Notes under the pieces: model-generated | Seen by the model: only the letters and a program-made list of their open reading frames with translations | Told to the model about the DNA's origin: nothing | The model's database searches: none | Part shown: piece after piece, positions 49,328 through 54,858 of the stretch | Layout: each line of letters starts with the position of its first letter | Numbering within the stretch: position 1 is the first letter of the stretch | Assembly: GCF_011050415.1 (NCBI RefSeq) | Contig: NZ_DRFS01000019.1 | Location: 62,001 to 126,000 of the forward strand | DNA: 64,000 bases | Reading direction: 5' to 3' | From: Halomonas sp. | GTDB lineage: Bacteria > Pseudomonadota > Gammaproteobacteria > Pseudomonadales > Halomonadaceae | Made by a program: the position numbers and the translations under genes

Positions 49328-49444
49328 TAGTCCTTTGGACTAATGAACAGGGCCTTCCTCTTGTATGGTAAGTTCGAATAGACAAGACGGCAGCGCAGAT
49401 TGCCGCCAGTACCACCTTTGACTTGGCTAATGAAGGGGCTTTTC

Positions 49445-51232
49445 ATGCAGCAGCGAGATTTCGATATCGTGATTGTGGGTGGGGGAGGCGCAGGATTACG
49501 CGCTGCCATTGGGGCCGCTGAGCAGGCCAAGGAGCAAAACACACCTCAACGTATTGCGCTGCTGTCCAAGGTTTACCCCATGCGCTCCCATACCGTGGCC
49601 GCGGAAGGCGGGGCAGCTGCGGTTACCAGCGCAGAAGACTCCCACCAGGCGCATTTTGATGACACGGTGTCAGGCGGTGACTGGCTGGTTGAGCAGGGGG
49701 TAGCTGATTACTTTGTCCACCACGCCTATCAAGAGCTGGTGCAGATGGAGCGCTGGGGCTGCCCCTGGAGCCGCAAGGATGACGGCCAAGTGCAGGTGCG
49801 CCGCTTTGGGGGGATGAAAACCGCCCGGACCTGGTTCGCTGCCGACAAAACCGGCTTCCATATGCTCCACACCCTGTTTCAGACCTCGCTGAAATACCCC
49901 GAGATCGAGCGCTTCGATGAGTACTTTGTGCTCGATCTCGCCGTCCACGAAGGCACCGTCATTGGCGTGATTGCGCTGCAAATCGCCACCGGTGAATTGA
50001 TCCTGCTGCGCGCCAAAGCGGTGGTGCTCGCCACCGGCGGCGCGGGTCGCCTGTTCCGCTTCAATACTAATGCGGGCATTGTCACCGGCGATGGCATGGC
50101 GATGGCTTATCGCCATGGTGTGGCGCTGCGGGACATGGAATTTGTTCAATACCACCCCACCGGCTTACCCGGCTCCGGCATTTTGATTACCGAAGCGTGC
50201 CGGGGCGAAGGGGGTATTTTGCTCAATAAAGATGGCTACCGCTATCTGCAGGATTACGGCCTAGGCCCGGAAACGCCGCTGGGCAAGCCGGAGAATAAAT
50301 ACATGGAACTGGGACCTCGGGACAAACTCTCCCAGGCCTTTTGGCAGGAACAGCAGGCGGGCCGCACCGGCAAATTTGGCGACAGCGACGTGGTCTATCT
50401 CGACTTGCGCCACCTGGGTGAAAAATACATTCTGGAGCGTCTGCCATTTATCTGCGAGCTGGCCAAAGCCTATATCAACGTTGATCCGGTGAAAGAGCCG
50501 ATTCCCATTCGCCCAGCGGTTCACTACACCATGGGCGGGATCGAAACCGACCCTCAGTGCGAAACCTCGATTGCCGGACTATACGCCGCCGGGGAGTGTG
50601 CCTCCGTTGGTTTACATGGGGCCAACCGGCTGGGTTCCAACTCGCTTACCGAGCTACTGGTGTTTGGCCGCTTGGCCGGTGAGCAAGCAAGTCAACGTGC
50701 AGCGCAAACCGAGTGGGCCGATATGCACTTGCTGGAAGCCCAGGGTGATCGTCAGCTAGCCAAGCTTTCTAGGCTCTGTGACGGCGCCGGGAGCGATGAG
50801 AACTGGGTAGAACACAAGCACGCCATGGTGCAGGCTATGGAGAACGGCTGCGGTATTTATCGCACCGAAGCGAGCATGCGGCAATCGCTTGAAACCATAC
50901 GCCAGCTACGAGCGCGCTACGAAAAGGTACGCGTTAACGATACCAGCAAAATATTCAATACCGAGCTGCTTGAGTTTATCGAGTTTGGGTATGGCCTAGA
51001 TATCGCCGAAGCCTCTTGCCTGAGTGCACTGGAGCGCCGTGAATCACGCGGTGCTCACCAGCGCTTGGATGACGGCATGCAGAAACGCGACGACGTTAAC
51101 TACCTCAAGCATAGCCAGGTGTTCTATCAAGGCGAAGCCAATGCCGAGTTGCACTGGCAGGATGTCGATGTGCGGTTTTCCGCGCCGGCTGAGCGGGCCT
51201 ATGGCGATGCGGGCAAGGGGGGCAAGGTATGA
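49445..51232 (+). CDS. frdA: Fumarate reductase, flavoprotein subunit
   Basis: 595-aa catalytic subunit that reduces fumarate to succinate. It has the FAD motif [19 protein letters not shown], the flavin-linked histidine in [11 protein letters not shown] (His49) and [14 protein letters not shown]. It is closer to E. coli FrdA (602 aa) than to SdhA in length, and the separate frdC and frdD genes confirm fumarate reductase. ATG 49445 follows AAGGGG; the frame extends to 49400 without support. First gene of frdABCD-menBCE. Confidence 0.95.
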
Positions 51233-51981
51233 ACACCCAGCAGATCAGCACCAAACAAGTCAGCGTCAAACGCTATCTGCCAGACAGCTCGGCTGAACCC
51301 TTCTGGCAGCAGTACGAACTACCGGTGGACGACAGTACCTCGCTACTGGATGCCCTCAACCATATCAAAGAGCAGCTCGATAGCACGCTGAGTTACCGTT
51401 GGTCGTGCCGTATGGCGATTTGCGGCTCCTGCGGGGTGATGGTTAACGGCATTCCCAAGCTGGGCTGCAAAACCTTCCTGCGCGATTACGAAGGCGATAT
51501 CCGTATTGAGCCGCTGGCTCACTTCCCCGTACAGCGGGATCTGGTGGTGGATATGGAGATCTTCCTTGAACACCTGGCGGCGGTAAAGCCCTACCTGATT
51601 GATGACAACCCGGTAAAACCCTACGATCCCAAAACGCCGGAAACCTATCAGCAGACGCCCGAACAGTTGGAGCGCTACAAACAGTTTGCTAACTGCATTA
51701 ACTGCGGCCTCTGCTACTCCGCCTGCCCTCAGTTTGGGCTTAATCAAGAGTTCCTCGGCCCAGCAGCGCTAACGCTGGCTCACCGTTACAACCTGGACAG
51801 CCGCGACCACGGCAAAAAAGAGCGTATGGCCGAGCTTAACCGCCACGACGGCGTATGGAGCTGCACCTTTGTGGGCTTTTGTTCTCAGGTGTGTCCAAAA
51901 CATGTTGACCCGGCTGCCGCAGTAAATCAGGGCAAGGTCGAGGCAGCTAAACACACGCTTATTGCGCTGTTTAAAGGGTAG
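51229..51981 (+). CDS. frdB: Fumarate reductase, iron-sulphur subunit
   Basis: 250-aa electron-transfer subunit. The 2Fe-2S ligands are in [13 protein letters not shown] and KLGC, the 4Fe-4S ligands in [12 protein letters not shown], and the 3Fe-4S ligands in [17 protein letters not shown]. Its ATG overlaps the frdA stop (ATGA). The gene is separated from frdC by an unusual 231-bp gap that holds a structured element. Confidence 0.96.
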
Positions 51982-52006
51982 GGGCAACTAGGCCGCGCTG
52001 CCGTGC

Positions 52007-52142
52007 GGCAGGTTTCCGCGAGGGCGCTGTGAACCCATCCATGGGCGCTACTTTCGCCATCTGACCGCCAGGGATGGCGGAAATGCCGGAATTGTCAGGA
52101 ACATTTTCCGGCCATGGCGAAAGACCCTCGCTACAACCTGCC
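52007..52142. repeat. 136-bp structured element with terminal inverted repeats between frdB and frdC
   Basis: The element is bounded by GGCAGGTT-TCC-GCGAGGG (52007-52024) and CCCTCGC-TAC-AACCTGCC (52125-52142), exact complements except for three central bases. Inside, TTTCGCCAT (52053-52061) pairs with ATGGCGAAA (52114-52122), and smaller inverted pieces lie between. So the RNA could fold into one long hairpin. It looks like a dispersed intergenic element of the BIME or MITE kind; I have the impression that halomonads carry similar ones, but no second copy is seen in this window. Confidence 0.65.
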
Positions 52143-52212
52143 CCACTCAACGGTATCGGATATCCGTAACCAACTGAGATAGCCCTGTTAGAAAAGGTGT
52201 AGGAGATAAGGT

Positions 52213-52614
52213 ATGGATAAATCATCATCGCAACGCCTGCCACCGCTAAAACGCAACTGGTGGCTAAAACACCGCTTTTTCAAGCTCTATATGCTGCGTG
52301 AAGCCACGGTGCTACCGCTGGTGTTTTTCACGCTCTGCTTCCTCGCCGGTATGGTTGCCCTGCTGCAGGGAGCGGATAGCTGGCAGGGGTGGATCGCCTT
52401 TATGGGCTCGCCCATTGTGCTATTGCTGAATCTTTTGGCATTGGCCGCCAGCCTGTTTCATGCCGCCACCTTCTTTGTGCTGTTCCCGCGGGTGATGCCG
52501 ATCCGCATTGCTGGGCATAGCCTGCCCGATCAAGTCACTGTCGCCGGTCAGTGGGCAGGTGTCGTCGTGGTCGCGCTGCTGTTTTTCTGGCTACTGGTGA
52601 GGAGTGGAGCATGA
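52213..52614 (+). CDS. frdC: Fumarate reductase, membrane subunit C
   Basis: 133-aa protein with three predicted helices and the FrdC-type N-terminal region WWLKHRFFKLYMLREATVLP, the conserved YMLREAT part of which lines the quinone pocket. It anchors FrdAB and takes electrons from menaquinol. AGGAG precedes ATG 52213. Its stop overlaps frdD. Confidence 0.92.
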   Translation: MDKSSSQRLPPLKRNWWLKHRFFKLYMLREATVLPLVFFTLCFLAGMVALLQGADSWQGWIAFMGSPIVLLLNLLALAASLFHAATFFVLFPRVMPIRIAGHSLPDQVTVAGQWAGVVVVALLFFWLLVRSGA

Positions 52615-53047: not shown

Positions 53048-53908
53048 ATGATTAAAGGACTCACTGAAGCAGAACTCTACGCGGCGATTGAGTGGCAGGA
53101 TCACTCAAGCGACTACCAGGATATTTTGTATCACACCTCAAAAGAGGGCATTGCCCGCATCACCATCAACCGCCCCGAAGTTCGCAACGCCTTTCGCCCG
53201 CTAACGGTGAGCGAGATGATCCAGGCACTAAGCCGGGCGCGCTACGACAGCGCCATTGGCGCGATTATTCTCACCGGTGCAGGCGACAAAGCGTTCTGTT
53301 CCGGTGGGGATCAGCGCATTCGTGGCGACTACGGTGGCTACCAGGACGAAGAGGGTGCCCATCACCTTAACGTGCTGGACTTCCAGCGCGATATTCGCAC
53401 CTGCCCTAAGCCGATTATCGCGATGGTGGCGGGTTACGCCATTGGCGGCGGCCATGTGCTGCATATGATGTGCGACCTGACCATCGCCGCCAATAACGCT
53501 ATTTTTGGCCAGACCGGCCCTAAAGTCGGCTCTTTTGATGGTGGTTACGGTGCCTCTTATATGGCGCGCATTGTGGGCCAGAAAAAGGCCCGGGAAATCT
53601 GGTTCCTATGCCGTCAGTACGATGCCGCCCAAGCGCTTGAAATGGGCCTGGTCAACCATGTAGTGCCCCTGGCGGAACTGGAGAAAGAGAGCGTACGCTG
53701 GTGCCGTGAAATGCTGCAGAATAGCCCGATGGCACTGCGCTGCCTGAAAGCCGCACTCAATGCCGACTGCGACGGGCAAGCCGGGCTGCAGGAGCTAGCG
53801 GGTAACGCCACCATGCTCTACTACATGACCGAAGAGGGGCAGGAGGGGCGTAACGCCTTCAACGAGAAGCGTCGCCCGGACTTCTCCCGCTACCCACGCA
53901 ATCCGTAA
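53048..53908 (+). CDS. menB: 1,4-dihydroxy-2-naphthoyl-CoA synthase
   Basis: 286-aa crotonase-fold enzyme that closes the naphthoate ring; E. coli MenB is 285 aa. It shows [32 protein letters not shown] (oxyanion-hole region), [19 protein letters not shown] and [12 protein letters not shown]. It starts the second men segment, directly after frdD; the stop overlaps menC. Confidence 0.96.
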
Positions 53909-54858
53909 TGCAACTAGCGCTTTACCGCTACTCTCTGCCGTTTCGCCAGCCGCTGGTTTTTAAAGGCCAGCGGCTGGCGAACAGAGAAGGACTGCTAGTG
54001 ACGATCAATGGCCAGTGGGGCGAGATAGCCCCGCTGCCTGGTTTCTCAACCGAAACCCTCGCCAAAGCGGAAACGGAAAGCCTGGCCTGCCTTGCCGCTA
54101 TAAAGCGCGGCGAGAAAGCCATGCCAACGTTACCCTCAGTGCAGTTTGGATTCGACTGTGCCCAGCGCCAATGGCCTGCAAATCTTCCCGCGCTTTTGCC
54201 CCCCTATCCACTGCTTCAAGGGGAGCCTGCGGCGCTGATGGTCACCCTTGATAATATCGTGGCCGGTTGGGGGGCTTTGCCGCCGACCCGACTCAAACTC
54301 AAAGTGGCACGCTACGCCATGGAAGAGGAGCTAGCGCTGATTAATCAGCTTGCTACTCGGCTGCCCACCACCAAACTGATTCTGGATGCCAACGGCGGCT
54401 GGACACGGGAAGAAGCCCAGCGTTTCTGCGAGTGTCTATCCCTTAAACAGATCGACTACCTGGAAGAGCCCTGCGCCGCCTTTGCCGACACCATCGCCGT
54501 GGCAGAAGCGACTGGGGTGGCCATCGCCCTGGATGAAACGCTAACGCGCGGGGAGGAGTGGTACTGCCACCCGCAGCTCAAAGCCCTGGTAATCAAACCC
54601 ACGCTGATCGGCTCGCTAAGTGACTGCGAGGCACTCGTTCAACGGGCACGGGCGGGCAACCTGCGCGTAGTCATCTCCTCCAGCTTTGAATCCGACCTAG
54701 GCCTTGGGCTGCTTGCCCGCCTGGCAAGCGAGTGGGCGCCCTCTGAGCCACCGGGGCTGGATACAGAACACTGGCTTACCGAGCGAGTTACCACTGCCAC
54801 AGGCGAGGTAGTAGCAGAAAACTTGCACTGTCTCTCTAAAATGGAAAATTCAGCGTGA
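53908..54858 (+). CDS. menC: o-Succinylbenzoate synthase
   Basis: 316-aa enolase-superfamily enzyme that dehydrates SHCHC to o-succinylbenzoate. The catalytic Lys is in RLKLKVAR, metal ligands in LILDANGGWT, YLEEPC and ALDETL, and the second Lys in LVIKPTLIGS. It is translationally coupled with menB on one side and menE on the other. In pathway order it acts before MenE and MenB. Confidence 0.95.
   Translation: MQLALYRYSLPFRQPLVFKGQRLANREGLLVTINGQWGEIAPLPGFSTETLAKAETESLACLAAIKRGEKAMPTLPSVQFGFDCAQRQWPANLPALLPPYPLLQGEPAALMVTLDNIVAGWGALPPTRLKLKVARYAMEEELALINQLATRLPTTKLILDANGGWTREEAQRFCECLSLKQIDYLEEPCAAFADTIAVAEATGVAIALDETLTRGEEWYCHPQLKALVIKPTLIGSLSDCEALVQRARAGNLRVVISSSFESDLGLGLLARLASEWAPSEPPGLDTEHWLTERVTTATGEVVAENLHCLSKMENSA

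What the first reader, a model, noticed from the sequence alone, without database searches (positions are those of the whole stretch)
52007..52142. Structured 136-bp element inserted inside the frd operon
The frd genes overlap or nearly touch except for 231 bp between frdB and frdC. That gap contains an element with near-perfect terminal inverted repeats and inner complementary segments. It could lower frdCD expression, stabilise the upstream RNA, or be a mobile intergenic element.
Basis: seen in the sequence. Interest (0 to 1): 0.58.

Follow-up and report, generated by a model that had tools for sequence, protein, structure and literature searches.

The report
Dispersed RNA-hairpin repeat in frd operon
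The stretch between two fumarate reductase genes is one copy of a folded DNA repeat scattered between genes in many related bacteria, and one strand of the repeat shows hairpin loops that look like docking sites for a global RNA-binding regulator (CsrA/RsmA), which would matter if confirmed because such repeats are usually explained by transposases or as terminators.

Summary
The element (family boundaries 51999-52150) folds far better than shuffles and is one of about 20 copies in its genome, 11 long. A 101-bp short form lacks a 51-bp inner block. Related copies occur in 74 of 82 genomes of the genus, 220 of 275 of the family and 102 of 372 sampled elsewhere in the order. At frdB-frdC only 4 of 50 relatives carry it; there the element is 98-99% identical between species whose frdB/frdC are 77-91% identical, so the spacer probably spread horizontally. 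No target duplication and no link to RAYT transposase genes was found. In the order, stems change freely but mostly stay paired; the most constant bases are two loops reading C-ANGGAN-G on the minus strand, the CsrA/RsmA consensus, and a CGCnGTnAA segment. In the genus this strand is the transcribed one at 32 of 36 same-direction sites, shortly after a stop codon; frd is one of the 4 exceptions, and other genera show no such bias. A dispersed structured repeat: near certain. CsrA/RsmA binding: a testable inference. Effect on frdCD: untested.

The parts
49400..51232 (+). frdA, fumarate reductase flavoprotein (upstream in operon; start codon not settled)
   Evidence: ORF; Pfam FAD_binding_2 and Succ_DH_flav_C
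51229..51981 (+). frdB, iron-sulfur subunit; its stop codon ends 17 bases before the element
   Evidence: Pfam Fer2_3
51999..52150 (+). Whole long-form element (152 bp by family boundaries; the reported 52007-52142 is its well-paired part)
   Evidence: boundary by flank information over 40 sites; covariance model hit 100.6 bits
52007..52014 (.). outer stem, left arm (pairs with 52135-52142)
   Evidence: pair columns covary in relatives
52135..52142 (.). outer stem, right arm
52018..52024 (.). second stem, left arm (pairs with 52125-52131)
   Evidence: covariation
52125..52131 (.). second stem, right arm
52034..52045 (-). hairpin A; on the minus strand its hexaloop (52037-52042) reads A-N-G-G-A-N closed by C-G, the CsrA/RsmA consensus
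   Evidence: consensus from PMC7652899
52051..52060 (.). hairpin B stem, left arm (pairs with 52114-52123); in the short form its loop is a second minus-strand ANGGAN hexaloop, here interrupted by the 51-bp block
52114..52123 (.). hairpin B stem, right arm
52062..52112 (+). 51-bp inner block present in long forms only (edge ambiguous by 1 base); gained or lost as a precise block at the apex of hairpin B
   Evidence: 13 of 23 multi-version sites hold both forms
52065..52080 (+). inner hairpin 3; plus-strand hexaloop A-G-GGA-U closed by C-G (52070-52075)
52085..52112 (+). inner hairpin 4; plus-strand GGA (52098-52100) at the loop, invariant in 29 of 29 aligned long copies
52151..52212 (+). 62 bp between element and frdC with its own Shine-Dalgarno-like AGGAGA; no other convincing copy in the genome, travels with the element at frd
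52213..52614 (+). frdC, membrane anchor subunit
   Evidence: Pfam Fumarate_red_C

Best explanation
It is one long-form copy of a family of dispersed, non-autonomous structured repeats found across the order (near certain). The basic unit is about 101-105 bp: a long basal stem capped by two hairpins. On the strand that I call minus, both hairpin loops read ANGGAN closed by C-G. Inferred mechanism: when that strand is transcribed, as in 3' untranslated and intercistronic RNA, the two loops, 22-24 nt apart, offer a dual site for the CsrA/RsmA dimer. The repeat would thereby mark its mRNA for CsrA/RsmA-dependent stability or translation control, and the many copies together may titrate the protein. 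A 51-bp inner block, gained and lost precisely, breaks the second minus-strand loop and puts two GGA loops on the plus strand. In frd the element lies in the rare orientation, so frd mRNA would carry the plus strand: a very stable intercistronic stem plus the two GGA loops of the block. Shown here: family, structure, covariation, loop conservation, strand bias in the genus, patchy frd site. Inferred: transcription, CsrA/RsmA binding, any effect on frdCD.
For: Copies: own genome 36 BLAST rows at E<=10, of which 11 are near-complete long copies and 7 are short-form sites; genus 74 of 82 genomes; family 220 of 275, 15 of 24 genera; order sample 116 of 390 genomes, 52 of 142 genera, of which 14 of 18 are family members and 102 of 372 are not. 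Covariation: order set (56 rows), 93.0% of cells paired, 628 cells changed on both sides against 174 shuffled, score 0.866 against 0.190 +/- 0.010 in 500 shuffles and at most 0.132 when slid; family set (51 distinct rows), 98.8% paired, 22 of 32 pairs with two-sided change, score 0.290 against 0.106 shuffled, at most 0.071 slid. Loops: at least two minus-strand GGA hexaloop hairpins in 48 of 55 order copies and 54 of 54 family copies, against at least one on the plus strand in 4 of 55 and 15 of 54; closing pair C-G in 103 of 107 and 109 of 109 minus-strand hairpins; loop spacing 22-24 nt in 44 of 48 and 22 nt in 53 of 54. Columns at least 90% constant in 48 non-redundant order copies are mainly the two loops, their closing pairs and a CGCnGTnAA segment; in hairpin A both N positions vary, in hairpin B only the first does. 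The review PMC7652899 gives the ANGGAN loop and bridging of sites 10-63 nt apart, best over 18 (passages). Strand: 32 '--' against 4 '++' of 36 same-direction sites, 9 convergent, 1 divergent, 2 inside ORFs, of 48 distinct sites in the genus (p=1.9e-6); upstream stop 15-70 bp away in 30 of those 32. CsrA (PF02599) in 81 of 82 genus genomes including the own. Rfam TwoAYGGAY, a family proposed to bind CsrA (PMC4333381, passage), matches the same strand weakly in three order loci.
Against: No transcription or binding data. The order and family copies were found with a model built from genus copies and picked from its best-scoring hits, so part of the loop conservation is selection by the search. 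The strand bias fails outside the genus: order sample singles 6 '--', 4 '++', 8 '-+', 1 '+-', 1 inside an ORF; other genera of the family 3 '--', 3 '++', 7 '+-', 3 '-+', 9 inside ORFs. An earlier set mixing the genus with other genera gave 30 against 10. Long forms are not enriched where the plus strand is transcribed (18 of 32 '--', 3 of 4 '++'), as a strict GGA-strand reading would predict, and long copies in the common orientation keep only one canonical loop on the transcribed strand. The CGCnGTnAA segment is not explained by CsrA. In hairpin B the second N of ANGGAN is nearly fixed (94%). Hairpin B is often a long stable stem, and PMC7652899 notes that very stable structure may hinder CsrA. 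In the order sample copies often come as inverted pairs, which fits a DNA-level REP-like role. TwoAYGGAY scores stay below Rfam's gathering score (29.5-33.4 against 43 bits). Not every covariation measure beats its control: in the order set further pair types are 80 against 86.8 shuffled, two-sided pairs 30 against 26.7 (3 of 500 shuffles reach it), and helix 3 is paired in only 72.3% of cells. Compensatory change can also arise from template switching that perfects palindromes.
Confidence: 0.4

Rival explanations
1. A REP/REPIN-like DNA element: the hairpins are substrates for a single-strand transposase (Y1/HUH type), and the folded shape and conserved loops are kept because the enzyme reads them as single-stranded DNA. 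The RNA role is incidental.
For: Palindromic, mostly intergenic, many copies, no target duplication. In the order sample the 13 close pairs that I printed (at most 12 distinct sites) are all inverted in the same order, + then -, like REP doublets. The own genome has two RAYT genes.
Against: No copy lies near either own RAYT among the hits: none on contig C18, nearest on C6 about 97 kb away. The one RAYT locus read is flanked by a different, GTAGGAGG-type REP array. RAYT presence does not follow element load: 15 of 27 genus genomes with 10 or more BLAST matches have one, against 44 of 82 overall (match numbers are capped). In the sample of other Halomonadaceae genera, near neighbours are mostly in the same orientation. 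The unit is several times longer than a REP (REP size recalled).
Confidence: 0.34
2. A MITE of an insertion sequence with a DDE transposase, like the Correia element (NEMIS/CREE) of Neisseria: short and long forms, RNase III-processed hairpins that change expression of neighbouring genes.
For: Size classes of 101 and 152 bp resemble the ~105 and ~150 bp forms of CREE (PMC2649163, passages); stable double-stranded stem in either strand's RNA.
Against: No target duplication of 5-9 bp at any of 8 end offsets over 40 sites, and at most 1 of 40 at 3 or 4 bp. The long form differs by an inserted hairpin pair. The arms diverge freely between loci while staying complementary, whereas terminal repeats read by a DDE transposase should keep their sequence.
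Confidence: 0.08
3. A passive mRNA stability or coupling element: after stop codons the stem blocks 3' decay or uncouples the next gene. Selection is on stem stability only, and at frd it lowers frdCD relative to frdAB.
For: Position 15-70 bp after the upstream stop in 30 of 32 '--' genus sites; strong fold; stems kept by compensation.
Against: Does not explain why the loops and the CGCnGTnAA segment are the most constant bases, nor the strand bias in the genus, since both strands fold about equally well.
Confidence: 0.12
4. Spacer at frd without any effect there; the copy persists by chance.
For: It is absent from 46 of 50 relatives at this site, so it is dispensable.
Against: The element is 98-99% identical between species whose frdB/frdC differ by 9-23%, although recent exchange alone would also give this.
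Confidence: 0.06

Closest known systems
TwoAYGGAY RNA motif (Rfam RF01731, clan CL00106)
   Same: Long basal stem and two adjacent hairpins whose loops read AYGGAY/ANGGAN on one strand; proposed CsrA-binding (PMC4333381, passage read)
   Different: Matches of order-level copies at 29.5-33.4 bits, below the gathering score 43; no match for the frd copy (L001) at E<=1; ours is a high-copy dispersed repeat with a conserved CGCnGTnAA segment
REP / BIME / REPIN elements with RAYT transposases
   Same: Palindromic, mostly intergenic, high copy, inverted pairs in the order sample, no target duplication
   Different: 101-105 bp with a branched head; not next to the own RAYTs; no link to RAYT presence in the genus
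Correia elements (CREE/NEMIS) of Neisseria
   Same: Short (~105) and long (~150) forms, stable RNA hairpin (PMC2649163, passages read)
   Different: No target duplication seen; long form carries an extra two-hairpin block; arms are not sequence-conserved
Intergenic repeat families of Pseudomonas fluorescens, e.g. R178 (101 bp)
   Same: Same length class, intergenic, inverted repeats (PMC2718517, passages read)
   Different: Its consensus sequence was not seen (supplement not readable here), so identity is untested; a lead only
CsrB/RsmZ-type CsrA antagonist RNAs
   Same: GGA motifs in hairpin loops
   Different: Those are dedicated sRNA genes with many sites (CsrB 22 GGA, PMC7652899); here two sites per dispersed copy, mostly behind genes

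Membership tests
REP/REPIN-RAYT | dispersed palindromic intergenic repeats in many copies | tested here: met
REP/REPIN-RAYT | RAYT gene next to or associated with the repeat | tested here: not met
   own RAYTs at C18:21579 and C6:299234 have no copy nearby among the hits; 12 of 27 element-rich genus genomes have no RAYT match. Tested in the genus only
REP/REPIN-RAYT | REP-sized hairpin (about 20-40 nt) with GTAG at its foot (definition recalled) | tested here: not met
   unit is 101-105 bp; GTAG occurs on the minus strand of genus copies but is not conserved in the order set
DDE MITE / CREE | target site duplication | tested here: not met
   40 sites, lengths 2-9 at 8 offsets: none at 5-9, at most 1 at 3 or 4, and one excess at 2 bp (14 of 40 at offset 2) that lies inside the palindromic stem
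DDE MITE / CREE | an IS with the same terminal repeats | not tested
   no systematic search; only the ORFs around one fragment (L024) and one RAYT (L113) were read
TwoAYGGAY RF01731 | score at or above Rfam gathering threshold | tested here: not met
   window; 18 different loci: matches in 3 (L217, L218, L220), best 33.4 against 43 bits
TwoAYGGAY RF01731 | two hairpins with AYGGAY-type loops on a common stem | tested here: met
   for short and order-level copies; in the long form, such as the frd copy, one of the two loops is interrupted
CsrA/RsmA binding site | ANGGAN hexaloop closed by C-G in a hairpin | tested here: met
   against the consensus in PMC7652899; the C-G closing pair as part of the consensus is recalled
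CsrA/RsmA binding site | bound by CsrA/RsmA | not testable with these tools
   needs gel shift or CLIP-seq
Intrinsic terminator | GC hairpin followed by a T run | tested here: not met
   one search finds none in the frd element; flanks of 40 sites show no T-run signal

The most novel reading that the evidence does not exclude
An order-wide family of dispersed repeats is a genome-scattered CsrA/RsmA docking module: selection keeps the two ANGGAN loops and the pairing of otherwise free stems, in one genus the copies sit sense-oriented behind stop codons, and a 51-bp cassette that comes and goes precisely moves GGA loops to the other strand. This would be a repeat family that plugs genes into, or drains, the Csr/Rsm network, and at frd it would place a fumarate respiration operon under it.
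Probability: 0.3. Interest if true: 0.82.

Novelty: new variant of a known kind. Interest (0 to 1): 0.6.

Why it matters
Bacterial intergenic palindromic repeats are usually explained by transposases or as terminators. Here the most constant bases match the binding consensus of a global post-transcriptional regulator while the stems change freely, in 220 of 275 genomes of one family and 102 of 372 sampled elsewhere in the order. That makes a direct test possible: does CsrA/RsmA bind repeat-derived RNA across the genome, and do repeat gains rewire regulons? The precise gain and loss of the 51-bp block at 13 of 23 comparable sites is also an unexplained recombination event that can be studied.

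Tried and rejected
Intrinsic terminator or promoter: none in the element. Known Rfam family: nothing at gathering score in the window. Weak TwoAYGGAY matches occurred in 1 of 4 loci (L217) and 2 of 17 (L218 twice, L220); L217 was too and did not match there, presumably because of the stricter filters. The mir-266, mir-204, mir-939, Ysr224, SRP, snoRNA and isrG rows were taken as chance hits to a long hairpin. Target duplication: none beyond chance; the one excess (14 of 40 at offset 2, length 2) is the palindromic CG of the stem. RAYT as driver: no proximity, no correlation in the genus. Plasmid or phage carriage: the genus short form in one plasmid record (a 1.83-Mb Halomonas replicon, 11 places) and no phage record; one order-level copy in no plasmid record. 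Enrichment of long forms in the ++ orientation: not seen. A first frdB-end parse that ran past the stop codon was discarded and redone (then 12). Partial hits L024 and L026-L030 were treated as fragments or chance and left out of counts. The nine 'inside ORF' rows of the family sample are probably spurious ORFs in part: of five scanned, one had a Pfam match. The second window match (minus strand, 25.1 bits) is the palindrome read backwards; the like row L231:1551-1656 is in the pair counts but was dropped. L299 was left out of the context counts because its stretch begins at the element. L203, the stretch around the second RAYT, was fetched but not analysed.

Full report
What is at the site. 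frdB ends at 51981 and frdC starts at 52213. The reported 136 bases fold far better than dinucleotide shuffles on either strand. By the flank information of 40 distinct sites the element reaches 8 bases further on each side, 51999-52150, and the covariance model built from 20 short copies places it exactly there with 100.6 bits.

Copies. In the own genome BLAST gives 11 near-complete long copies including the frd copy, 7 short-form sites (71-85 bases in the 136-base frame), 2 degenerate copies and fragments. In the genus 74 of 82 genomes have matches (scoring per genome is capped, so numbers per genome are lower bounds). One plasmid record (a 1.83-Mb Halomonas replicon) holds the genus short form, no plasmid record matched one order-level copy, and no phage record matched the genus short form.

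Two forms. Short and long forms differ by a 51-bp block at the apex of the second hairpin. In a genus set of 146 elements at 51 sites, 23 sites were seen in more than one version and 13 of these hold both forms; at one site (L119 against L094) the two are otherwise identical over 101 bp. An earlier, smaller set gave 9 of 40 sites. I cannot tell precise excision, precise insertion and gene conversion apart.

The frd site. Of 50 relatives aligned at frdB-frdC, 4 carry the element: L033 long; L034, L044 and L053 short. The others have a short spacer or overlapping genes; L049's apparent 60-base gap comes from a truncated frdB alignment. The element differs by 3 of 152 (L033), 1 of 101 (L034), 2 of 101 (L044) and 2 of 101 (L053) bases from the window, while frdB is 78.0-88.0% and frdC 76.9-90.5% identical. 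Other long and degenerate copies in the own genome, by contrast, are 81-95% identical to the frd copy. L051 and L053 agree in 56-60 of 60 bases per window along the frd genes, yet L051 lacks the insert. So the same spacer, element plus about 17 and 62 flanking bases, has probably been exchanged between species rather than inserted anew; strong constraint is the alternative. The 62 bases bring an AGGAGA before frdC and have no other convincing copy in the genome (whose query was the right-hand 70 bases: one further 21-base match at E 0.15).

Structure. RNAalifold finds a basal stem and two hairpins in 20 short sites, with 17 of 32 pairs showing compensatory change, and 18 of 44 in 29 long sites. 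On model-fitted alignments, the family set (51 distinct rows) has 98.8% of cells paired, 22 of 32 pairs with two-sided change and a score of 0.290 against 0.106 shuffled. The order set (56 rows, one of them a palindrome read backwards) has 93.0% paired, 30 of 32 pairs and a score of 0.866 against 0.190 shuffled. Slid structures stay at or below 0.071 and 0.132. Not every measure favours the structure: in the order set further pair types are 80 against 86.8 shuffled, two-sided pairs 30 against 26.7, and helix 3 is paired in 72.3% of cells. The alignments were fitted to the structure, which favours it. But the printed sequences, where arms of different loci share little sequence and are still complementary, leave no real doubt about the outer stem and hairpin B. 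Template switching that perfects palindromes could contribute to such compensation.

Loops. In 48 non-redundant order copies the columns at least 90% constant are mainly the two loops with their closing pairs and a CGCnGTnAA segment, plus a C after hairpin A and one G-C pair in hairpin B. On the minus strand both loops read C-A-N-G-G-A-N-G; both N vary in hairpin A, while in hairpin B the second is U in 94%. At least two such hairpins occur on the minus strand in 48 of 55 order copies and 54 of 54 family copies, against one or more on the plus strand in 4 of 55 and 15 of 54. This is the RsmE/CsrA hexaloop, and the 22-24 nt spacing (44 of 48; 53 of 54 at 22 nt in the family set) lies within the range bridged by one dimer (PMC7652899, passages read). 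Caveat: these copies were found with a model built from genus copies and taken from its best hits, so the loop conservation is partly selected for. In the long form the second minus-strand loop is interrupted, and the 51-bp block has two hairpins with GGA at the loop on the plus strand, invariant in 29 of 29 copies. Rfam's TwoAYGGAY, suggested as CsrA-binding by a motif survey (PMC4333381, passage read) and rated a probable RNA by its discoverers (PMC2864571, passages read), matches the same strand in L217, L218 (two places) and L220 at 29.5-33.4 bits, below the threshold of 43; no other of the 18 different loci of the two calls matched it.

Context. With a simple hexamer gene caller, 48 distinct genus sites split into 32 where the minus strand is the transcribed one, 4 where the plus strand is, 9 convergent, 1 divergent and 2 inside ORFs (102 orthologous duplicates and 2 elements near a locus end dropped before counting, of 152). 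In 30 of the 32 the match begins 15-70 bp after the upstream stop codon. In the own genome alone the split is 12 to 3, with 2 convergent, 1 divergent and 1 inside an ORF. An earlier set that mixed the genus with other genera gave 30 to 10, 8 convergent, 2 divergent and 3 inside. The frd copy is one of the few plus-strand cases. The bias is absent in the order sample (singles 6 '--', 4 '++', 8 '-+', 1 '+-', 1 inside; members of close pairs 10 '--', 10 '++', 6 '-+') and in the other genera of the family (3 '--', 3 '++', 7 '+-', 3 '-+', 9 inside). In the order sample the 13 close pairs that I printed, at most 12 distinct sites, are all + then -; in the family sample near neighbours are mostly in the same orientation.

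Who moves it. No target duplication. The own genome has two RAYTs; the one whose surroundings were read lies in a different REP array, and no copy lies near either. Of 27 genus genomes with 10 or more matches, 15 have a RAYT, against 44 of 82 overall. I made no systematic search for another transposase partner.

Reading. That this is a dispersed structured repeat family is near certain. That its RNA binds CsrA/RsmA is the best single explanation of which bases are conserved and of the strand bias in the genus, but it is an inference: the bias is genus-limited, long copies do not follow the prediction, one conserved segment is unexplained, and the search favours conserved loops. A DNA-level REP-like role is the main rival. 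At frd the likely immediate effect is a very stable intercistronic stem with two GGA loops between frdB and frdC; whether this changes frdCD is open.

Literature. Searches for Halomonas, Marinobacter, REP, REPIN/RAYT, CsrA and repeat terms listed no paper that, from its title and the start of its abstract, describes this family: 1 of 1 listed; 1 of 1; 4 of 4; 7 of 7; 12 of 56; 15 of 50; 15 of 396. The library holds open-licence papers only. The R178 repeat of P. fluorescens (101 bp; PMC2718517, passages read) could be a relative whose sequence I did not see.

Noticed in passing
L010:1501-1612 and L281:1301-1401: Copies lie inside ORFs with a UvrD-helicase domain, one in the own genome and one in another genus, roughly 100-150 codons from the ORF start: the repeat seems to be read through as protein.
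   Followed up: partly
L113:1182-2391 (own genome C18): A RAYT gene sits in an array of GTAGGAGGGAGCTT-type REPs with a 142-bp period on one side, a separate repeat system.
   Followed up: partly
genus genomes G001, G015, G025, G029, G031, G041, G077: In these genomes one copy lies about 14.5 kb from csrA (coordinates); probably one orthologous site and coincidence.
   Followed up: no
window:52151-52212: Spacer between element and frdC with short palindromic stretches; in L053 it has a perfect CTAACTGAG-CTCAGTTAG hairpin before the ribosome site.
   Followed up: no
window:53942-53981: A 40-base near-perfect palindrome (20-base arms, 90% complementary) inside the ORF at 53908-54858 downstream of frdD.
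   Followed up: no
window:44659-44696: A palindrome at the junction of two converging ORFs, possibly a bidirectional terminator.
   Followed up: no
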